Source of the DNA: Acidimicrobiia bacterium
GTDB lineage: Bacteria; Actinomycetota; Acidimicrobiia; IMCC26256; BP-133
Direction of reading: 5' to 3'
NCBI GenBank assembly: GCA_025934385.1
Contig: JAICYE010000068.1
Span: 1 to 8,410, forward strand
DNA: 8,410 bases
The notes beneath the pieces are model-generated. The model saw only the letters and a program-made list of their open reading frames with translations, ran no database searches and was not told the DNA's origin. Of the stretch, positions 193 to 8,410 are shown in pieces (position 1 is the stretch's first letter; every line of letters begins with the position of its first letter). A program made the translations under genes and the position numbers.

Positions 193-2145
193 ATGAGGAC
201 CTTCAGAGGCGGGACCAGAAAGGGGATCGTGGTCCTGAGCGCACTCGCGCTCCTGGCCGTGTATCCCGGTGTGTCCAGCGGTAGCTCACAATCGAACTCC
301 GTGGCATCGGCGCTCACCGCAGCGCGACAGCGCGCCGACGCCATCAATAAAACCAATGACGTACCCAAGGTCACCCAGAACCTGATCCCCGGCGCTCTGC
401 AGGCCCGGAATCTGGCGATCAGCCAGTTCAAGGCGGCTCAGGCGACGGGGTCCGCCGCAGCGTTCAGCAAGCCGGAGTACGCCGTCATCTGGTCCGGCAA
501 GAACAACATCGGCGACATGAGCGGCAACGACTGGATGCGCTTCATCAACCAGGGGGCGATCAGCCCGACCGGTCTGATCAACGTGGGCAGCAAGCAGTGG
601 CTGGGCGGTCTCGACGCCATGGTCGTCGTCGACGTCCGCAAGAACAACGTCGACGGGTCGAGGAACCCGGACTACGGCAAGGTCGTCAACTTCGTCGAGG
701 TGCCGCCCCCGTTCGGGGTGGAGGGCGAGCCCCACCACATGCAGTACCAGTGGAAGCCCGGCGAGCCGATCGTGGCCGGCCACCTGTTCACCGACCTGAC
801 GTCGATCTGGGACGTCAACGACGTCCCCAACATCGTCCTGAAGAACATCGTCCGGGGTGAGGAGAACCCGATCGGTGCCTTCCCCGACGCCTACGACTTC
901 GCCGGCGACAAGGCCATCGGTACGTACATGACCGCCGGTGAGCCCAACTACGGTGGCTCGCCCGGCTCGGTCGTCGTGTTCAAGCCGGACTCGGCCAAGG
1001 GCATGGTCCAGGAGTCGGAGACCGCCGCCAGCCAGGTCGGGGCCGTCTTCCGGGGCAACCCCAACGGCATCCCCGAGCCCTGTACCCCGATCGAGGGTCG
1101 GCCGATGGGGACCTGCGGCAACCCGCACGGGATCCAGGCCCGACCGGACCTCAACCGGATGGTGACGGACGACTACGCCGACGCCCGGGAGCTCGGCTCC
1201 GACCCGCTCAAGACCGTGGAGCAGCACGCCTTCCGGCCGACGATCCGGGTCTGGGACATCTCCAACCCCGGGGAGCCCAAGCTGATCTCGGTGGCCCACA
1301 TGCCGAAGAGCGTGAAGAACACGCCGAACCCGGCCCACGACAACATCGGGATCATGGAGGGGGCCAAGACCTACGCCCCGGCCAAGGGGATGTTCTCCGG
1401 CTCGATGTGCGGCGGGGGGATCTTCTTCCTGCCCGACATGACCAACGTGCAGCCGGACTCCTCCAGCCAGTGGAAGCAGGTCTGGGACGACGGCATGGCC
1501 GAGATGCAGGTGCAAGGCCGTGACGTCCGCGGTGCCGGCGCAGGTACCGGCAACGAGCCCGGCGCCTGCGCCGGTGGCGCCTGGCACCAGGTGACCCCCG
1601 ACAACCGGTTCCTGTTCCGGGCCGTCGGCGGGCGCAACCCCGGCTCGACCAACACCTACGACAACGGCACGCCGAAGATGATCTACGTGATCAACGTCGA
1701 GAAGCTGATCAAGCACGCCACGGAGACCGGCACGGTCGACTGCAACATCAAGAGCGGTCGCGAACTGGGCCAGGGCCATGGCGACGCCGATGACTGCCCG
1801 ACGCTGGCCGGCGTGGTCACCGTTGACGACAACACATCGGGCGGCCCGCACTGGGGCGCCCTCGACAACCAGAACTTCACGGACAACGGGGCGCCGACCC
1901 GGAGCATCTTCTGCGACTACTTCGTCGCCAGGACGGGCTACGACGGCAACCACCGCTGCTACATGCTGAACGTCAACCCCGAGACGGGTGCGCTGAGCTA
2001 CGACACGACCTTCCGTGACGAGTACAACGGCTCCCTCGGCATCGACTTCAACCGCTCGGACTGGCCGGGCCACCCGGGTGGCGGGTTCTACAAGCCGCAC
2101 TCGATGGTGTTCGTTACGCCGGAGGCGGTGGCCGGCCCCCACTAG
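193..2145 (+). CDS. Secreted SBP56/methanethiol-oxidase-like beta-propeller protein
   Basis: 650 residues. The N-terminus is a secretion signal: basic residues (RTFRGGTRK), a hydrophobic stretch at about 11-24, then a small-residue region (VSSGS). From about residue 140 on, the protein follows the order of motifs in selenium-binding protein 56: VVVDVRKN with YGKVVNFVEVP (about 143-171), the double histidine of GEPHHMQYQ (H181, H182; compare ELHHSGWN in SBP56), TSIWDV, then RVWDISNPGEPKL (352-364), WHQVTPDNRFLF (464-475), GGPHWGALDN (550-559) and a tail rich in His, Pro and Gly (WPGHPGGGFYKPHSM, 624-638). In the family, methanethiol oxidase is a periplasmic copper enzyme that turns methanethiol into formaldehyde, hydrogen sulfide and hydrogen peroxide, with histidines binding the copper. 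H181, H182, H312, H465, H553, H627 and H636 are the candidates here. It is longer than the usual 460-470 residues because of an N-terminal extension and insertions, and it has eight Cys (297, 308, 406, 459, 517, 535, 574, 589) that could form disulfides outside the cell. The CopC/CopD gene next door supports a copper role. Family membership is fairly secure; the reaction is inferred. It could also be a non-enzymatic propeller. Confidence 0.78.
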   Translation: MRTFRGGTRKGIVVLSALALLAVYPGVSSGSSQSNSVASALTAARQRADAINKTNDVPKVTQNLIPGALQARNLAISQFKAAQATGSAAAFSKPEYAVIWSGKNNIGDMSGNDWMRFINQGAISPTGLINVGSKQWLGGLDAMVVVDVRKNNVDGSRNPDYGKVVNFVEVPPPFGVEGEPHHMQYQWKPGEPIVAGHLFTDLTSIWDVNDVPNIVLKNIVRGEENPIGAFPDAYDFAGDKAIGTYMTAGEPNYGGSPGSVVVFKPDSAKGMVQESETAASQVGAVFRGNPNGIPEPCTPIEGRPMGTCGNPHGIQARPDLNRMVTDDYADARELGSDPLKTVEQHAFRPTIRVWDISNPGEPKLISVAHMPKSVKNTPNPAHDNIGIMEGAKTYAPAKGMFSGSMCGGGIFFLPDMTNVQPDSSSQWKQVWDDGMAEMQVQGRDVRGAGAGTGNEPGACAGGAWHQVTPDNRFLFRAVGGRNPGSTNTYDNGTPKMIYVINVEKLIKHATETGTVDCNIKSGRELGQGHGDADDCPTLAGVVTVDDNTSGGPHWGALDNQNFTDNGAPTRSIFCDYFVARTGYDGNHRCYMLNVNPETGALSYDTTFRDEYNGSLGIDFNRSDWPGHPGGGFYKPHSMVFVTPEAVAGPH

Positions 2146-2223: not shown

Positions 2224-5208
2224 GTGATGGCGATGATCAGCGGGGCACGGCCACGGCGATACGCCGTGGCCGTGCCCGCGCTTCTGGCCCTGTTCGTGGT
2301 GGTGCTCTCGCCCTGGGCGACGATGGCGGCCTGGGCCCATCCCTACCTCGTGCAGACCCAGCCCGGACCGGGTGTGGCGCTGCGGGACTCGCCCCCCTCG
2401 ATCCAGATCGGCTTCACGGAAAAGGTCGTGCTCCAGGGTTCGTCGCTCCGTCTCGAGGACGGCGACGGCCACCCGGTGGCGCTTGGGCCGGTCCGCGTGC
2501 CGAAGGAAGGGCCGGGGCTGGCCGCCGACATCAAGGGGCCCCTGGGCGGCGACGTCTACCGGGTGCGGTGGGCCGTCCTCGGCGAGGACGGGCACAGCTC
2601 CTCGGGCGAGTTCCGCTTCGGCGTCGACGGACCCGGCGGAGTCCCGCCCCGGCACGCCGAGCTGCTCAGCGCCACCGGCGGACCGGGCGAACAGGCGGCG
2701 GCGTCGGACGGGCCCGTGCGCATCGCCCTGCGCTGGCTCGGCCTGCTCGGCGCGGCGCTGCTCGTCGGCGGCGCCGTCCTGCTGACCCGGCTGCGGGGCC
2801 GCCTGGAGGACGCCGCCGCCGACACCGTCTCGCGCCGGTGGACACAGGTGGCCCGGATCGGGTGGGTCCTCACGCTGGCCGGATCGATCGCCGGTGTCGT
2901 CGGGGCCGCCGGCGCCGGTTCGGGCGGCGCCCGGATGTCGATCCTGCTGGCCACCAGCACCGGCGGGCTGTCCCTGGCCCGGCTGGCCGGCGTGGTGGTG
3001 ACGGGGATCCCCGGCCTGACCGGCCGGCCCGGGCCCCGCCGAGACCAGTACCTCGGCCTGGCCGGCGCCTTCTTCCTCGGGGCCGAGGCGGTCGGGGGCC
3101 ACGTCACCGCCATCAACGCCGCCGGCGCCCGGGCGGCGGCCATCGTCGCCCAGGGGGCGCACCTGGCCGCCGCGGCGATGTGGGTCGGCGGGCTCGCCGT
3201 GCTGGCCTACGCCATCGCCGGCGTCGACGCTTCGGTCCGGCCGTCAGCCTGGCGCACGGCCGCGGCCGCCTTCCGGCCGGTGGCGGCGATCTCCGCCGTG
3301 GTGGTGATCGCCACCGGCGTCATCGCCTCGGTCCGGGAGGTGCAGCACAAGTACTTCCTGCTGTGGTCGGCCTACGGCCGGTACCTGCTGGCCAAGTGGG
3401 TGCTGGTGGCCGGCATGCTCGTGCTCGGCGGGCTCGTGGGGCGGGCGCTGGGCGGCCGCCGCCGCGCCTACGTTCCCGGGTCGTCCTCGTCGGAGCGGTC
3501 GAGGCCGGTCGGTTCGCTCTTGCGGGTGGAGGCCGTGCTCGGCGTCGCCGTCCTCGTCTTCGCCGCCACCCTGGTCGGCGTGGCCCAGGGCCGGGGCCAG
3601 CCGCTGCCGGCCCAGAAGGGGAGCGTGCTGGCCGGCCCGGCCTTCGCCAACGCCGTCGTCGGCGGCGGGCTGGTGAGGATGGCGCTGTCGCCGGCGGCCC
3701 CGGGCCACAACCAGCTGACCGCCCTGCTGGCCCACCCCGTCGAGGCGGCCGCGGCCGGCGGCGTGCAGGCTTCGGCCCCCGCCCCCGGCGAGCAGGAGAC
3801 CGTGTCGGTGTCGATGGTGTGCGACTGCGCCGCCAAGCCCGTCGCCGCCGACCTCACCCGGGCGGCCGGTGCCTGGCGCGCCGACGTGAACCTGCCGTCG
3901 GCCGGGGTGTGGCGCGCCTCACTGAAGATCGGCGGCAGCTCGTCCCTGGCCCCCGTGGCGCTGCGGGTGGCCACCGGCTCGGCGCCGGGCGCCCCGGCCG
4001 GGGAGGTCAGCTCGATCGGCGACCTGTCGGGCCCCGCCGCCCGCCGCTGCCGGTCCTTCGAGCTCGGTCTCGTGCTGGCGCTGGGGTTCATCAACGCCAA
4101 GGGCGGCGTGGGCGGCCGCAAAGTCGTCGTCCGCTCCTCGGACGACGCCGGCGACCCGGCCAAGGCCCGGCAGCTGGCCGAGCAGGACACCGGCGCCGAT
4201 CTCGCCGTCCCCTGCGGAAGAACGGCGGCGGTGACCGCCGGAATCCTGCAGAAGCACATGCCGGTCGTCGTGGCCGACGCCCTGGCGCCGCCGGTGGCCG
4301 GGGACCGGGTGTATCGCCTCTCCGGCGACCCCTACGCCGAAGGCTGGTCGGCCGGCCGGACAGTGGCCCACAGCACCGCCTTGACCGAGCCGGACGTGCC
4401 GAAGCGCGTCGACGTCCTCGTGGAGGACGACGACCCCGGCGCCGACCGCATCATCGCCGGCCTGAAAGCGGCCCTGGCCCTCGATCCGGCGGCGGCGGCC
4501 AAGGTCGAAGAGGGCTTCAAGTCGATCAGCACCGCCAACGTCGAGGTCGTGGTGCAGCGGCACAAGCCCGGGACGCCGCTGGCGCCGCTGGTGGCCGAGG
4601 CGGTCGATGCCAGCAAGTACGTCACCAGCTTCCTGGCCGCCGATCCCGCCACCCTCGGCCCGGCCCTCGACTCGCTCACCGATCTCCAGGTCGCCCGGCC
4701 CCCCTCGCTGCTGGCCGCATCCCGGGCGTTCGACGAGGCGTTCCTGCGGGATTCGAAGATCGGGCGCCGGGGGGACGTGAAGGTCTTGGGCGAGGTGGCG
4801 CCGGACAGCGGGGAATCGCTGGTCTACACCAAGCTCGTCCAGACGATCTTCCCCGGCGAGCAGCCCTCGATCGACGGGCTGCGGGGCTACATGGCCGGGA
4901 AGGCCATCGCCACTGCGCTGGACAAGGGCGGCGACCTCGCCCAGCAGTTGAAGCTCCTGAACGTGTTCTCCGACGGCGTGGCGTCAGGGTGGAGCCCGGC
5001 GGCGCCGGCGGCGGGGTCGTGGCGGTTCTTCCTCTACCGGGGCACGTTCCTCTCCAGCACGCTCCAGCCCGGCGAGAAGGCCGAGCCCGGCCGGTTCTTC
5101 GCCGAGGGGGGCGCCTGGAACCGGGTGCAGACCGCCAACCTGGGCCTGTGCGGGCCACAGCTGACGTACGACGGGCCGCCCCCGCCCTGCACGCCTCCGC
5201 CCAAGTAA
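2224..5208 (+). CDS. CopC-CopD copper protein fused to a type 1 periplasmic binding protein domain
   Basis: 994 residues. A signal segment at 12-38 ends in the signal peptidase motif AWA, which would leave H39 as the mature N-terminus, as in CopC. Residues 39-134 are a CopC domain: PGPGVALRDSPPSIQIGFTEKV and GEDGHSSSGEFRF are family hallmarks, and H39, D122 and H124 are the expected copper(II) ligands. Residues about 165-455 are a CopD-type membrane domain with about eight hydrophobic segments (near 168-188, 210-231, 250-265, 276-295, 303-331, 350-370, 387-408, 432-454), a CopD-like GAHLAAAAMWVGGL (311-324) and YGRYLLAKW (384-392); H293 and H313 are conserved-type histidines. About 482-583 resembles the small beta domain (YtkA-like) seen at the end of other CopCD proteins. 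About 595-980 is a type 1 periplasmic binding protein domain of the Leu/Ile/Val-receptor class: FELGLVLALGFINAKGGVGG (612-631), SDDAGDPAKARQLAEQ (639-654), VLVEDDDPGADRIIAGLKAAL (731-751) and DGLRGYMAGKAIATALDKGG (884-903). With an even number of membrane segments, the CopC and receptor domains would both lie outside. CopC/CopD proteins bind or import copper; the receptor's ligand is unknown. A frameshift joining two genes is unlikely, since the frame is continuous and the domains are linked smoothly. The protein ends in a Pro-rich tail. Confidence 0.85.
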   Translation: MMAMISGARPRRYAVAVPALLALFVVVLSPWATMAAWAHPYLVQTQPGPGVALRDSPPSIQIGFTEKVVLQGSSLRLEDGDGHPVALGPVRVPKEGPGLAADIKGPLGGDVYRVRWAVLGEDGHSSSGEFRFGVDGPGGVPPRHAELLSATGGPGEQAAASDGPVRIALRWLGLLGAALLVGGAVLLTRLRGRLEDAAADTVSRRWTQVARIGWVLTLAGSIAGVVGAAGAGSGGARMSILLATSTGGLSLARLAGVVVTGIPGLTGRPGPRRDQYLGLAGAFFLGAEAVGGHVTAINAAGARAAAIVAQGAHLAAAAMWVGGLAVLAYAIAGVDASVRPSAWRTAAAAFRPVAAISAVVVIATGVIASVREVQHKYFLLWSAYGRYLLAKWVLVAGMLVLGGLVGRALGGRRRAYVPGSSSSERSRPVGSLLRVEAVLGVAVLVFAATLVGVAQGRGQPLPAQKGSVLAGPAFANAVVGGGLVRMALSPAAPGHNQLTALLAHPVEAAAAGGVQASAPAPGEQETVSVSMVCDCAAKPVAADLTRAAGAWRADVNLPSAGVWRASLKIGGSSSLAPVALRVATGSAPGAPAGEVSSIGDLSGPAARRCRSFELGLVLALGFINAKGGVGGRKVVVRSSDDAGDPAKARQLAEQDTGADLAVPCGRTAAVTAGILQKHMPVVVADALAPPVAGDRVYRLSGDPYAEGWSAGRTVAHSTALTEPDVPKRVDVLVEDDDPGADRIIAGLKAALALDPAAAAKVEEGFKSISTANVEVVVQRHKPGTPLAPLVAEAVDASKYVTSFLAADPATLGPALDSLTDLQVARPPSLLAASRAFDEAFLRDSKIGRRGDVKVLGEVAPDSGESLVYTKLVQTIFPGEQPSIDGLRGYMAGKAIATALDKGGDLAQQLKLLNVFSDGVASGWSPAAPAAGSWRFFLYRGTFLSSTLQPGEKAEPGRFFAEGGAWNRVQTANLGLCGPQLTYDGPPPPCTPPPK

Positions 5209-5213
5209 CCGGG

Positions 5214-5720
5214 TCAGCCCGACTGGATCAGCTTGTTCAGGCGTTTGAAGAGGTCGTCGGTCTTCTCCTTGGAGAGCCCGGTGACCTGGATCCGGCCGTC
5301 GAACGATGTGAACTGCAGCACTGGCGCGCTCACCACCTGACCCTGGGTCATGATCGCCAGCCGCTTGCCCTGGTTGCGCCGGGCGTAGCCGTCGAGATTG
5401 GCGCTGCCGACACCGCCGAGGACGACCGACAGCGCCGGTGCCCCCGAAGGGTCGTCCGCCACGGTGGCGGACCGGACGTCCTTGGCGTCGACCACCGGCT
5501 CGCCGAGCTCGAGGCATTCCGCCTTGCCGTCGGTGGTCTTCGGCCGCACCAGCTCGTTCTTCTTCGGCGCCTTGCTGGCGCAGGGCGGCGGCTTGGACGA
5601 CAGCACAGGCCGCAGCTCCAGCAAGCCTCGTTGCGCCGAGTCGTCGCTCTTCCGGCACGCCGTCCCGACGACGGGGAGCCCGACGGCCAGGGCGAGCAGC
5701 AACGTGGCCGGGCGGTACAT
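5214..5720 (-). CDS. Small SecD P1-head-like probable lipoprotein
   Basis: 168 residues from the ATG at 5720. Reading can be extended further upstream, but that part lies inside the preceding gene and lacks a signal peptide, whereas this ATG starts MYRPATLLLALAVGLPVVGTAC, a lipoprotein-type signal. VGTAC satisfies the broad lipobox rule, although Gly at -3 is unusual; C22 would be the lipidated residue. Residues about 70-165 resemble the head part of the SecD/SecDF first periplasmic domain: ELGEPVVDAKDVRSATV, LSVVLGG, and especially GKRLAIMTQGQVVSAPVLQF (118-137; SecD has GKRLAI-x-DGKVISAPVI), then IQVTGLSKEKTDDLFKRLN. No SecD membrane helices are present, so this is a free-standing module rather than a translocase subunit. 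Its role is unknown. It overlaps the upstream gene as TGATG and has no clear ribosome binding site of its own, so it is probably translated by coupling. C47 and C69 could form a disulfide. Confidence 0.75.
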   Translation of the reverse strand: MYRPATLLLALAVGLPVVGTACRKSDDSAQRGLLELRPVLSSKPPPCASKAPKKNELVRPKTTDGKAECLELGEPVVDAKDVRSATVADDPSGAPALSVVLGGVGSANLDGYARRNQGKRLAIMTQGQVVSAPVLQFTSFDGRIQVTGLSKEKTDDLFKRLNKLIQSG

Positions 5721-6763
5721 CAGGGAGTGAAGCCCGCCAGTACCGCTGTCGCGTTGGAGTCGTAGGTGAAGCTGAAACCGACCTGGTGGCGCTCGCCGTG
5801 GAAGACCTCGACGAACTTCACCCACGTGTTCCGGGCGGGGTCGAACCACATCGTCCGGTTGCGGTAGCCCTGGTCGGAGCCGCCGGGGCGGAACTTCCGG
5901 TCGACCTGAACCTTCCAGGCGTTGACGGTCGTGCCGCCGACGGTCACCGGCTCCTGGCCCACGACCGTGGTCGTCCAGTCCTCGGTGCGGCTCAGGCTGC
6001 CGTCACCGTTCTTGGCCTGGGTGACGCCGGTGCGTGTGTAGCCCGCCTTGAGCGGCCAGGGGATCTCGAGGATCGGGGGCTCGTAGTCGGCCTGGCTTGT
6101 CTCGGTCCGCGGCCCGAACGTCACCGAGCCGCCCTCGAAGTCGAAGTAGATGCCGTCGTTGCGGAAGCCGACGATCTCCCGCTCGGCGTGCTTGTCGGAG
6201 TACGTCAGGTCGTAGACCAACTGGTCGGGCTTCAGGCCCGGCGCGCTGTGGACGACCATCGTCATCTTGTCGGGGAACTTCCGGCTCCCGACGAAGGAGG
6301 CGCCCTCGGTGCCGTCGACATTCCAGGTGTAGGTGCCGAGCGCCGGTTTCCCGAGGGTGCCGGGCTGGCTCGGCGCCGGGGCGGGGGCGGGGGCGGTCGG
6401 CTTTGGTGTGGTCGTCGGCACAGGGCCGGAAGCCGCCCGGGTGGTGGGCGTGGTGGCCCGCGGGCCGGACGTGGCCGGGGTCGGGCTGGAGCCCGGCCTG
6501 GTCGTCGGGGCCGTGGTGCTCGACGACGGCGGAGCGGTGGCCGCGGGGTCGGTGACGGCGCTCGTCGGCGTCGCGCCGGTCGTGCCGGTGGTGGCCTCGG
6601 TCGACGTCGTGATCGGCGGGCCGGCGACGGCGAACTGCCCGCCCCGACGGAATGACGGCGGGCCTTTGTGGGTCAGCTTGTAGCCGACGACCCCGGCGGC
6701 GACAACGGTCACGGAGGCAACCCCCGCGATGATCTTTACCCGTAAGGACGGACCTTGCGCCAC
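5720..6763 (-). CDS. Membrane-anchored protein with Thr/Pro-rich linker and outside beta domain, unknown function
   Basis: 347 residues from a GTG at 6763, with a GGGGG ribosome binding stretch 9 bases ahead of it. Residues 9-28 are one hydrophobic segment after a short basic N-terminus, giving either a membrane anchor with the rest outside or an uncleaved signal. Residues about 50-133 (coding bases 6365-6616) are a low-complexity linker of Thr, Pro, Ala and Ser, typical of actinobacterial cell-wall-spanning regions and possibly glycosylated. Residues about 138-347 form one beta-rich domain with alternating hydrophobic and polar residues (GTYTWNVDG, GIYFDFEGGSVTFG, ILEIPWPLKAGYTRTG, TVNAWKVQVDR, RTMWFDPARNTWVKFVEVFHG). 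The late Trp-Phe-Asp-Pro followed by W-V-K-F-V recalls the sandwich folds of DUF3108 or LolA-like lipid-binding proteins, but this is only a resemblance. No cysteines or catalytic motif stand out. It is the first gene of a two-gene unit with the SecD-head-like lipoprotein, so the two probably act together at the envelope. Confidence 0.8.
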   Translation of the reverse strand: MAQGPSLRVKIIAGVASVTVVAAGVVGYKLTHKGPPSFRRGGQFAVAGPPITTSTEATTGTTGATPTSAVTDPAATAPPSSSTTAPTTRPGSSPTPATSGPRATTPTTRAASGPVPTTTPKPTAPAPAPAPSQPGTLGKPALGTYTWNVDGTEGASFVGSRKFPDKMTMVVHSAPGLKPDQLVYDLTYSDKHAEREIVGFRNDGIYFDFEGGSVTFGPRTETSQADYEPPILEIPWPLKAGYTRTGVTQAKNGDGSLSRTEDWTTTVVGQEPVTVGGTTVNAWKVQVDRKFRPGGSDQGYRNRTMWFDPARNTWVKFVEVFHGERHQVGFSFTYDSNATAVLAGFTP

Positions 6764-6801
6764 GGCGTCTGAACCCCCATCTGGCCTTCAGGCTTCATCC
6801 C

Positions 6802-6807
6802 AAGATA
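6802..6807 (-). promoter_or_regulatory. Possible -10 element for the minus-strand pair
   Basis: Read on the minus strand this is TATCTT. A start about 7 bases downstream would leave a leader of about 30 bases carrying the GGGGG ribosome binding site before the GTG at 6763. No good -35 hexamer lies 16-18 bases upstream. A small AGCGC/GCGCT inverted repeat (6807-6811 with 6818-6822) sits just beside it. This is a weak call. Confidence 0.25.
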
Positions 6808-6930
6808 GCGCACCCAGGCGCTGCACCGTTACCGAAGCCCCCTGATTAATGAGAAATACGGCCGCGAAATTCCCGACCTCCTCGCTACGGATTTGACTTG
6901 TATAACCGTGGAATTTCCTGGCTAATTTTG

Positions 6931-6946
6931 ATTGCGCAATTGCGCA
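6931..6946 (+). promoter_or_regulatory. Palindromic tandem repeat, likely operator of the ArsR repressor
   Basis: ATTGCGCA occurs twice in direct tandem (6931-6938 and 6939-6946). Because TGCGCA is self-complementary, the same stretch contains a perfect 14-bp palindrome, TGCGCAATTGCGCA (6933-6946). It lies 20 bases ahead of the arsR start, within the likely -35/spacer region, where a dimeric winged-helix repressor would block RNA polymerase. The binding protein is inferred from position and symmetry. Confidence 0.6.
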
Positions 6947-6966
6947 CATCCATGTACTGTGATGTC
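6932..6966 (+). promoter_or_regulatory. Predicted promoter for a leaderless arsR transcript
   Basis: A -35-like TTGCGC (6932-6937) and a -10-like TACTGT (6955-6960) are exactly 17 bases apart. Transcription 7 bases after the -10 would begin at 6967, which is the G of the in-frame GTG where ArsR homology begins. No ribosome binding site precedes that GTG or the in-frame ATG at 6952, which fits leaderless translation, common in actinobacteria. A second -35-like TTGACT at 6893-6898 has no -10 at proper spacing. Confidence 0.5.
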
Positions 6967-7269
6967 GTGACAGTTCCCGCCGGGCTGGTCGAAGAAGTGG
7001 CCCGGCGGTTTGCGCTCTTGTCCGACCCGACACGGCTGCGGATTCTCGACGTGCTGCTCGAACGTGACGACATCACGGTCACCGAACTGGCCGGAGTGGT
7101 CGGCGAGGCGGCGCCCAACGTGTCGCAGCACCTGAGCCGGCTGCTGGCCGCCGACATCGTGGGCCGCCGCCGCGACGGGCGGACGGTGCGGTACTCCGTC
7201 GCCGACCCCACGATCCGCCCGCTGTGCGATCTGGTGTGCAAGGCCCTCAGCGCCCGCGGGAGAGCGTGA
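6967..7269 (+). CDS. ArsR/SmtB-family winged-helix repressor
   Basis: 100 residues from the GTG at 6967; the frame could be extended to the ATG at 6952 (105 residues), but the promoter layout favours the GTG. It starts VPAGLVEEVARRF and carries the family signature FALLSDPTRLRILDVLL (15-31), a recognition helix region (VTELAGVVGEAAPNVSQHLSRLLAADIV, split about 38-65) and a wing RRRDGRTVRYSVAD (67-80). Such proteins are dimeric DNA-binding repressors released by metals or by redox or thiol signals. The ELCVC metal motif of arsenic sensors is missing: that position reads TVTELAG with no cysteine. Two cysteines do occur four residues apart near the C-terminus, C87 and C91 in PLCDLVCKAL, on the last helix at the dimer interface, so a metal or a thiol-type signal sensed there is possible. 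It heads a two-gene operon and probably represses itself through the palindrome in its promoter. The family call is firm; the signal is unknown. Confidence 0.92.
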   Translation: MTVPAGLVEEVARRFALLSDPTRLRILDVLLERDDITVTELAGVVGEAAPNVSQHLSRLLAADIVGRRRDGRTVRYSVADPTIRPLCDLVCKALSARGRA

Positions 7270-7667
7270 ACCACAACGGCGCCGACCCGTCCGAGGGCTG
7301 TATCTTCTGCCAGCGGGGTGATGCTCCCGATCTGCTGGCCGGGAACGACCTGGCGATCGCCTTTCCGGCGGGCTTCCCGGTGAGTCCGGGCCATGCGCTG
7401 ATCGTGCCCCGCCGTCACGAGCCCGACTTCTTCGCTCTCACGGCCGAAGAGCAGGCCGCCGTCGTCGCCCTCCTCGATCCGGTGCGGGCCGTGCTCGACG
7501 AGCGCTGGTCCCCGGATGCCTACAACCTCGGCGTCAACGCCGGGAAGGCCGCCGGCCAGACGATCCGGCACGCCCACTTCCACGTCATCCCCCGCTACGC
7601 CGGTGACGTGGCCGAGCCTCGCGGCGGCATCCGCTGGGTTCTGCCCGAGACGGCCCGCTACTGGTAG
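7266..7667 (+). CDS. HIT-family nucleotide hydrolase/transferase
   Basis: 133 residues from the GTG at 7266, which overlaps the arsR stop as GTGA; GGGAG (7258-7262) lies just upstream, rather close at 3 bases. Longer starts would lie inside arsR and add residues without homology. The N-terminal CIFC (C12, C15) is the zinc-binding pair found in many bacterial HIT proteins, with H51 (RRHEPDFF) and H102 the probable other ligands. VSPGHALIVPRRH (39-51) and NLGVNAGKAAGQTIRHAHFHVIPR (split about 87-110) are typical of the Ap4A-hydrolase-like HIT branch. The triad is HAHFHVI, with H104 as the expected nucleophile that forms a nucleotidyl intermediate. Likely substrates are dinucleoside polyphosphates or AMP conjugates, hydrolysed in the cytoplasm. 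The length is normal and the key residues are intact. The overlap suggests coupled translation with arsR, so its level probably follows the repressor's signal. Confidence 0.92.
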   Translation: MNHNGADPSEGCIFCQRGDAPDLLAGNDLAIAFPAGFPVSPGHALIVPRRHEPDFFALTAEEQAAVVALLDPVRAVLDERWSPDAYNLGVNAGKAAGQTIRHAHFHVIPRYAGDVAEPRGGIRWVLPETARYW

Positions 7668-7672
7668 CGGGC
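7653..7672. terminator. Hairpin between convergent genes
   Basis: GCCCGCTA (7653-7660) and TAGCGGGC (7665-7672) form a perfect 8-bp stem around CTGG. The TAG in the right arm is the HIT gene's own stop codon. It sits 10 bases from the end of the opposing gene and could stop transcription from both sides. There is no T-run, so it would be a GC-rich, U-tract-less terminator of the kind often proposed in high-GC actinobacteria. Confidence 0.5.
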
Positions 7673-7681
7673 GGGCGCCGA

Positions 7682-8410
7682 TCACGCGCTGACCCGTCCG
7701 ACGCGGCGGCTGAAGGCCAGTGCCGCCGTCCGGTACATGGCGTGGGAGAACTTGGAGAACGGGAAGTAGGCGAACAGTCCGAAGATGAAGAACAGGTGCA
7801 CGACGTAGGAGACGTAGGCCGCCGTGTGGACCTGGCCGTACCGGAGGATCTCCGTCAGGAACCCGGTCAGGGCCGTGAGCCCGAGCAGACCGGAGAAGAA
7901 CCAGTCGGAGTACGCCGACTTGCCCGACTGCTTCGGCCGGCTGAGCCGGACCCACAGCGTCTGCGCCAGCCCCGCCAGCAGGGCGATGCCGCCGACGTTG
8001 CCGACGATCTTGACCGGGTCCCAGATCGGCAGCGAGAGGACGTTGTGGTGGTGGTGGATGCCGATCCGGGGGAAGACCTCGGTGTAGAGGAAGGCCCCGG
8101 TGGTGGCGGCGGTGAGGCCGAGGAAGCCGTAGAAGAGGCCCATGTGCGCCCACATCCGCGGGTGGGCCGTCTTGCAGTCGTTGAAATCCTTGTGGGAGAA
8201 CACGTCGGCCACGGTGCTGCCCAGCGCCTTCGACATCGGCGCCCGCGGCATTCCGTCGGGCACGGTGCTCTCCAGGCCCGCCCAGAACTTCCGCAGGCTG
8301 AGGTAGGAGAGCACGGCCACGATGGCCACGATCGAGAGGGCGAAGATGTCGACGTACCCGTCGCCGAGGAACCGGCTGAAGAGGACGTCGCCCTTGGGGA
8401 ACACGCCCGC
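7682..8410 (-). CDS. QmoC/HdrE-like membrane cytochrome b subunit (partial, 5' end outside window)
   Basis: The reading frame stays open through the window edge (Ala-Gly precede the GTG at 8404), so the N-terminus is missing; 242 residues are visible. Counting from the codon at 8404, five hydrophobic segments lie near 20-37, 87-107, 135-152, 168-187 and 196-216. The segment layout and the motifs FPKGDVLFSRFLGDG, FSHKDFNDCKTAHPRMWAHMGLFYGFLGL (about 69-97) and YVSYVVHLFFIFGLFAYFPFSKFSH (about 197-221) resemble the NarI-like membrane part of QmoC and of heterodisulfide-reductase-related subunits. H87, H193, H203 and H221 are candidate heme b ligands. In that family the missing N-terminal part usually carries 4Fe-4S clusters, and the subunit passes electrons between quinones and a soluble Fe-S/flavin partner. 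A run of four histidines (117-120) lies in a loop after the second segment. Partner subunits would be expected beyond the right edge. Function is by family resemblance; the redox partner is unknown. Confidence 0.75.
   Translation of the reverse strand, partial: AGVFPKGDVLFSRFLGDGYVDIFALSIVAIVAVLSYLSLRKFWAGLESTVPDGMPRAPMSKALGSTVADVFSHKDFNDCKTAHPRMWAHMGLFYGFLGLTAATTGAFLYTEVFPRIGIHHHHNVLSLPIWDPVKIVGNVGGIALLAGLAQTLWVRLSRPKQSGKSAYSDWFFSGLLGLTALTGFLTEILRYGQVHTAAYVSYVVHLFFIFGLFAYFPFSKFSHAMYRTAALAFSRRVGRVSA

What the first reader, a model, noticed from the sequence alone, without database searches (positions are those of the whole stretch)
2224..5208. CopC-CopD copper protein fused to a Leu/Ile/Val-type receptor domain
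One continuous 994-residue frame joins CopC (39-134, with mature N-terminal H39 plus D122 and H124), a CopD-like membrane domain (about 165-455), a small beta domain and a complete-looking type 1 periplasmic binding protein domain (about 595-980). CopC-CopD fusions are well known, and so are free-standing type 1 binding proteins of ABC transporters. I know of no described protein that tethers such a receptor to CopD. It could sense or hold a small ligand, such as a copper-binding metabolite or amino acid, and gate copper movement, or it could deliver a copper-ligand complex.
Basis: partly seen in the sequence, partly recalled or inferred. Interest (0 to 1): 0.82.

Follow-up and report, generated by a model that had tools for sequence, protein, structure and literature searches.

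The report
Copper importer fused to receptor domain
This is a real, conserved bacterial membrane protein in which a copper-uptake type protein carries an extra ligand-receptor domain, and its gene sits beside one for a secreted propeller-shaped protein distantly related to copper-dependent sulfur oxidases, which suggests an undescribed two-gene copper system.

Summary

Window 193-2145 encodes a secreted-looking 650-aa protein without Pfam match, modelled as a propeller and distantly similar to SBP56, the copper-dependent methanethiol oxidase family. It lies directly upstream of the fusion in 8 of 8 Thermoleophilia genomes that hold it, of 399 searched.

Most likely: a copper-supply protein for a secreted copper propeller, with a conserved receptor cleft reading a small ligand or the partner. 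Architecture and linkage are shown; copper, ligand and mechanism are inferred. Propeller relatives apparently lacking the fusion exist. I found no published description.

The parts
2224..5208 (+). CopC-CopD-YtkA-like-type 1 binding protein fusion, 994 aa (or 993 aa from ATG 2227)
2224..2337 (+). signal peptide, residues 1-38; mature protein would begin at H39
   Evidence: sequence ...MAAWA|HPYL; cleavage inferred; that His is kept in 61 of 61 rows with a letter there
2338..2625 (+). CopC domain, residues 39-134, with H39, D122, H124
   Evidence: 9c14 (YcnJ CopC) is the best PDB sequence match, E 9.4e-7
2713..3591 (+). CopD membrane domain, residues about 164-456, eight long helices in the model, invariant H293 and H313
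3583..3615 (+). signature segment AQGRGQPLPAQ, residues 454-464, just after the last long helix; motif absent from the four plain CopC-CopD proteins aligned
3640..3972 (+). YtkA-like beta domain, residues about 473-583, with CxC motif C533/C535 that the four plain proteins lack
3982..5181 (+). type 1 periplasmic-binding-protein domain, residues about 587-986, with invariant C609, C664, D685, R698, D702
193..2145 (+). partner gene: secreted-looking 650-aa propeller protein, distant SBP56/methanethiol-oxidase relative, 78 nt before the fusion; invariant H181, H182, H312, H553, H636

Best explanation
The two adjacent genes form a copper module. The fusion is a YcnJ-type copper importer or handler: CopC captures Cu(II) outside the membrane and CopD moves or offers it. 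Its added type 1 binding-protein domain has a conserved cleft of unknown ligand, probably not a plain amino acid. It serves the secreted SBP56-like propeller made by the upstream gene, a putative copper oxidase. I think the receptor reads or captures a small ligand tied to that enzyme (substrate, product or a copper complex) and so couples copper handling to enzyme need. Shown: architecture, folds by prediction, conservation, gene linkage. Inferred: that either protein binds copper, the direction of copper flow, the ligand, and the coupling.
For: CopC D121/H123 and CopD H292/H312 (P0002 numbering) are kept in 66 of 66 long members, CopC H38 in 61 of the 61 that reach it; all five are shared with the 4 plain CopC-CopD-YtkA-like proteins aligned. 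In B. subtilis YcnJ a CopC His (H24) and a CopD His (H295) are needed under copper limitation (PMC13344008, abstract and sections 8 and 9); I did not align H295 to this protein. The receptor part evolves about as slowly as the rest: mean identity 0.68/0.53/0.33 (within clade A, within clade B, between) against 0.69/0.50/0.37 for CopD. 8 of 14 invariant polar, charged, Cys or aromatic positions of the receptor lie just after strand ends, 2.9 expected, P 0.002; all 26 invariant positions give 10 against 5.3, P 0.02; before strand starts 3 of 26 against 5.0. Propeller gene next to fusion: 8 of 8 propeller-bearing genomes of 399 searched. In addition 9 of 40 propeller rows share source and exact contig length with a fusion row. 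SBP56 relation: Foldseek first hit 2ECE, E 1.1e-12; hhalign Prob 92, E 6.7e-7, with 12 of 12 reversed or block-shuffled controls under Prob 1; H181-H182 opposite the SBP56 His-His pair. MtoX needs copper and its operon holds a gene for the copper chaperone SCO1/SenC (PMC5739008, passages).
Against: I know of no experiment on a member and found none in the papers searched. The propeller family looks wider than the fusion: 642 matches against 78, though the two searches differ in query and length window. A propeller group about 55% identical shows 0 of 11 contig-length matches to fusion rows, against 9 of 29 for the closer group. By Z, several other propellers align to the partner as well as or better than 2ECE, which is rank 4. 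The SBP56 Pfam model does not match the window protein. A first hhalign in global mode with a poor profile gave nothing (Prob 0.1). H312 is not opposite the second-site His of SBP56 in the hhalign alignment. The cleft test used a zone width I chose, and one strand (658-661) that is not in the element list. The CxC motif is lost in some clade B members. Among ten ORFs profiled at Thermoleophilia loci, one of them the propeller, none hit a copper family.
Confidence: 0.45

Rival explanations
1. Maturation cradle. The receptor domain binds the partner propeller rather than a small molecule, holding the apo-enzyme while CopC/CopD copper is inserted, as proposed for the binding-protein-like XoxJ/MxaJ and apo-methanol dehydrogenase.
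For: Tight linkage to the propeller gene. [quoted passage not shown] No ABC permease was matched among the window ORFs profiled.
Against: The XoxJ-like PedG is annotated there in another class of amino-acid binding protein (PAAT); I did not test homology. Invariant cleft positions fit a small ligand at least as well.
Confidence: 0.2
2. Metallochaperone uptake system. The propeller is a copper chaperone that hands copper to the fusion for import, as the propeller AztD hands zinc to the solute-binding protein AztC.
For: AztD is a periplasmic propeller that transfers zinc directly to AztC (PMC6689063, passages). AztD structure 6n01 is among the Foldseek matches of the propeller, rank 50, E 9.1e-6. 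Apart from the receptor the fusion has the order of importers such as YcnJ.
Against: The propeller matches SBP56 better than AztD by Foldseek (2ECE E 1.1e-12). AztD has eight blades and acts on the binding protein of a zinc ABC transporter; this receptor is of the Leu/Ile/Val type.
Confidence: 0.17
3. The receptor domain has only a structural role (spacing or oligomerisation) and the fusion is an ordinary YcnJ-like importer; the propeller is a neighbour with an unrelated job.
For: LivJ contact positions are not kept. The propeller family looks wider than the fusion.
Against: Conserved cleft positions, conservation about equal to CopD, and linkage kept between fusions only about 35% identical.
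Confidence: 0.15
4. Assembly join or chance read-through.
For: Some relatives look broken or run on into the opposite strand of the next gene (P0018, P0066, P0068, P0225).
Against: 58 of 78 database matches carry all three Pfam domains; fusions lie inside contigs of several million bases in G013, G079 and G089, although G013 shows one in-frame TGA in the matched stretch.
Confidence: 0.01

Closest known systems
YcnJ of Bacillus subtilis (CopC-CopD-YtkA copper importer)
   Same: Domain order CopC-CopD-YtkA-like, N-terminal His of mature CopC, conserved CopD His residues
   Different: Adds a type 1 binding-protein domain after the YtkA-like domain; a GRGQPLPAQ segment and a CxC motif absent from the four plain relatives aligned; the neighbour is a propeller, whereas ycnJ lies between ycnI and ycnK
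LivJ/Leu-Ile-Val type 1 binding proteins (Peripla_BP_6)
   Same: Fold and Pfam family
   Different: Tethered to a membrane protein; Ser79 opposite Gly and about Ala100 opposite Asp; the Cys78 position is Cys but the Cys53 position is Gly, with an invariant Cys opposite Gly19 (the LivJ disulfide is recalled)
SBP56 / MtoX methanethiol oxidase and SELENBP1
   Same: For the partner gene: beta-propeller fold, His-His pair, signal-like N-terminus as in periplasmic MtoX
   Different: 650 aa against 435 aa for MtoX; no match to the Pfam model; neighbour is CopC-CopD rather than SCO1/SenC plus MauG
AztD/AztC zinc chaperone and solute-binding protein
   Same: Pairing of an extracytoplasmic propeller with a metal-uptake system that has a binding protein
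   Different: Zinc, ABC transporter, eight blades
XoxJ/MxaJ and ped-cluster PedA1/PedA2
   Same: Binding-protein-like accessory near a periplasmic oxidoreductase or propeller
   Different: PQQ-dependent enzymes; not described there as joined to CopC/CopD

Membership tests
YcnJ-type CopC-CopD-YtkA importer | CopC domain with mature N-terminal His plus second His and Asp | tested here: met
   Pfam match; H38 in 61 of 61 rows with a letter, D121 and H123 in 66 of 66
YcnJ-type CopC-CopD-YtkA importer | CopD membrane domain with conserved His | tested here: met
   Pfam match; H292, H312 in 66 of 66 and shared with the 4 plain proteins aligned
YcnJ-type CopC-CopD-YtkA importer | C-terminal YtkA domain | tested here: inconclusive
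   Aligns through the beta tail of plain CopC-CopD proteins but no Pfam hit; that the plain tails are YtkA domains was not tested
YcnJ-type CopC-CopD-YtkA importer | Copper import | not testable with these tools
   needs experiment
Type 1 periplasmic binding protein fold (Peripla_BP_6) | Sequence profile and fold | tested here: met
Leu/Ile/Val amino-acid receptor (LivJ) | Lobe-1 amino-acid contacts Ser79, Ala100, Thr102 (recalled) | tested here: not met
   Ser79 opposite invariant Gly; the alignment near 100-102 is of low confidence
Leu/Ile/Val amino-acid receptor (LivJ) | Cognate ABC permease genes nearby | tested here: inconclusive
   none among the 7 window ORFs profiled, but the window is short
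SBP56 / methanethiol oxidase (for the partner) | Match to Pfam SBP56 above cut-off | tested here: not met
   no hit for the window protein; a distant relative in G616 hits at E 0.0028, below cut-off
SBP56 / methanethiol oxidase (for the partner) | Propeller fold like 2ECE | tested here: met
SBP56 / methanethiol oxidase (for the partner) | Copper His set (MtoX His89, 90, 140, 412) | tested here: inconclusive
   His-His pair aligns; H312 is not opposite the second-site His; H636 lies beyond the aligned part but in the expected order
SBP56 / methanethiol oxidase (for the partner) | Copper content and thiol oxidation | not testable with these tools
   needs experiment

The most novel reading that the evidence does not exclude
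A receptor-controlled copper supply system: the type 1 receptor senses the substrate or product of a new secreted copper-oxidase family and controls the CopC-CopD copper path that metallates it, a single-chain bacterial metallation regulator that I have not found described.
Probability: 0.25. Interest if true: 0.85.

Novelty: new variant of a known kind. Interest (0 to 1): 0.62.

Why it matters
How extracytoplasmic copper enzymes get copper, and what CopD-type importers are for, is still open. A conserved gene pair in which a YcnJ-type protein carries a receptor and travels with a putative copper propeller ties one importer to one client and gives a testable ligand-binding domain. It also brings a large family without Pfam domains, named 'hypothetical protein' wherever a listed row had a name (642 matches, 120 listed), near the methanethiol oxidases.

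Tried and rejected
Own-genome and relatives searches were not possible: no genome is held for the window.

Mce/MlaD genes lie beside the pair at L013, L014 and L029, but 8 of 9 genomes hold 18 to 91 MlaD matches, so the adjacency says nothing.

A free-standing ancestor of the receptor domain was not found. One search gave 37 matches: 9 already seen and 28 new. I read 7 of the 28: they begin inside the beta or receptor part or look broken; one, P0207 (467 aa, 6677-base contig), begins with Met inside the beta domain and could be a shorter gene or a miscalled start. The search reaches only relatives that share 5-residue words.

Viral contig scans found no relative. I did not reach an Acidimicrobiia genome sample; the class of G616 (66 genomes) held no propeller but G616's own at E 1e-15. 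Paper searches: DUF2182 with copper gave none; PpoB2 or DUF2182 gave 4 listings, not read; Acidimicrobiia with selenium-binding protein and copper gave none. The first SBP56 profiles had wrong-frame rows (L032, L043); one search replaced the last one and also used another MAFFT mode, and the hhalign E-value went from 5.2e-5 to 6.7e-7.

Full report

It is not an artefact. A search with residues 585-994 against 5.8 billion proteins returned 78 matches at E <= 0.001 among 7994 scored candidates; 58 of the 78 carry all three Pfam domains, the window's own protein among them. Two sets appear: one close to the window, with source names such as Acidimicrobiia and Actinobacteria, and one 33-40% identical overall. 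A genome scan found relatives in two Solirubrobacterales MAGs, class Thermoleophilia. The second set is closer to fusions in such genomes (best match 43-76% identical for the 11 proteins compared) than the window protein is (35%). Of 399 genomes in that class, 8 hold the C-terminal part; in a 396-genome phylum sample 2 do, both already seen. Conservation was counted on the 66 of 70 aligned rows longer than 880 aa (55 close, 11 distant).

It has the order of a YcnJ-type protein plus one domain. Six of the nine genomes searched hold a CopC besides the fusion's; G089 and G280 show only the fusion's, and G396 shows none. I fetched seven such regions; four gave a protein that aligned with the fusion, three gave no match at E 1e-4. 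The four align through CopC, CopD and a beta tail and end a few residues before the receptor begins. CopC H38/D121/H123 and CopD H292/H312 are shared by the four and kept in the fusions: H38 in 61 of the 61 rows that reach it, the others in 66 of 66. The GRGQPLPAQ segment and a CxC motif are absent from the four plain proteins; CxC is in 100% of the close set and 73-80% of the distant set. [quoted passage not shown]

The receptor is under constraint but is not a LivJ copy. Mean pairwise identity of the receptor is 0.68, 0.53 and 0.33 within the close set, within the distant set and between them, against 0.69, 0.50 and 0.37 for CopD. In the hmmsearch alignment to LivJ, LivJ Ser79 is opposite an invariant Gly, Tyr18 opposite Arg607, Cys78 opposite invariant Cys663, Gly19 opposite invariant Cys608, and Ala100 roughly opposite invariant Asp684. 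Of 14 invariant polar, charged, Cys or aromatic positions, 8 fall in the seven positions from each strand end, 2.9 expected, P 0.002; all 26 invariant positions give 10 against 5.3, P 0.02; zones before strand starts give 3 against 5.0. The zone width is my choice, and one of the ten strands is not in the element list. That strand ends face the cleft in this fold is recalled. No free-standing close relative of this domain was established (7 of its 28 new rows read).

The neighbour. Window 193-2145(+) encodes a 650-aa protein with a signal-like N-terminus and no Pfam or PDB sequence match, 78 nt before the fusion. A homologue was found at six of the seven loci first examined; the seventh, L016, begins inside the fusion. 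Searched over the 399-genome class sample it occurs in 8 genomes, and in all 8 the fusion start follows on the same strand. Seven of these are on the fusion list. The eighth fusion genome, G396, has its hit starting at base 3 of a contig, so its upstream side is not held; the eighth propeller genome, G280, has the fusion cut by its contig end. For Acidimicrobiia-like sequences I could not read contigs, but 9 of 40 propeller rows share source and exact contig length with a fusion row.

Mechanism. I read the pair as a copper-handling importer (CopC-CopD) dedicated to a secreted copper propeller, with the receptor domain binding a small ligand tied to that enzyme. Rivals are a maturation cradle like XoxJ/MxaJ (PMC12997753, passages), a copper-chaperone uptake system like AztD/AztC (PMC6689063, passages), and a merely structural receptor. 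Against a strict partnership: the propeller family looks larger (642 against 78 matches), and a 55%-identical propeller group shows 0 of 11 contig matches to fusions against 9 of 29 in the closer group.

Print. Searches for CopC/CopD with binding-protein or architecture terms, for selenium-binding protein or methanethiol oxidase with CopC/CopD and for Acidimicrobiia with selenium-binding protein and copper showed no description of the fusion or the pair in the titles and abstract starts listed; one search matched 260 papers, of which 12 were listed. The library lacks most subscription journals and preprints. Verdict: a real, conserved new variant of the YcnJ-type architecture, with an undescribed and strongly linked partner; function inferred.

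Noticed in passing
window 5214-5849(-): Lipoprotein-like ORF with SecDF P1-head domain (PF22599, E 2.4e-11), convergent with the fusion. The tail of P0018 looks by eye like antisense reading of a similar gene, so the neighbour may be conserved in relatives.
   Followed up: partly
window 5720-6763(-): 347-aa secreted-looking ORF, DUF3108 at E 0.0013, below cut-off; its end overlaps the start of the 5214-5849 ORF.
   Followed up: no
window 6898-7269(+) and 7224-7667(+): ArsR/SmtB metalloregulator (NF033788, 77 bits, cut-off 55) followed by a HIT-domain protein.
   Followed up: no
window 7682-8410(-): QmoC-like membrane subunit, NF038018 E 6.3e-53 but 180 bits against cut-off 300; the frame is open at the window's end.
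   Followed up: no
L027 4682-8251: In G616 a distant SBP56-like secreted-looking propeller (6419-8251) follows a PF09948 'copper chaperone' gene (5363-6199); a Cys-rich 148-aa ORF (4682-5128, minus strand, no Pfam match) lies beside them.
   Followed up: partly
L013, L014, L029: MlaD/Mce genes beside the pair; these genomes hold so many MlaD copies that the adjacency is not informative.
   Followed up: yes
L043 2860-4857: Skermanella rosea plasmid pSR-1 has an SBP56 gene next to an SCO family gene, like the mtoX operons described in PMC5739008.
   Followed up: no
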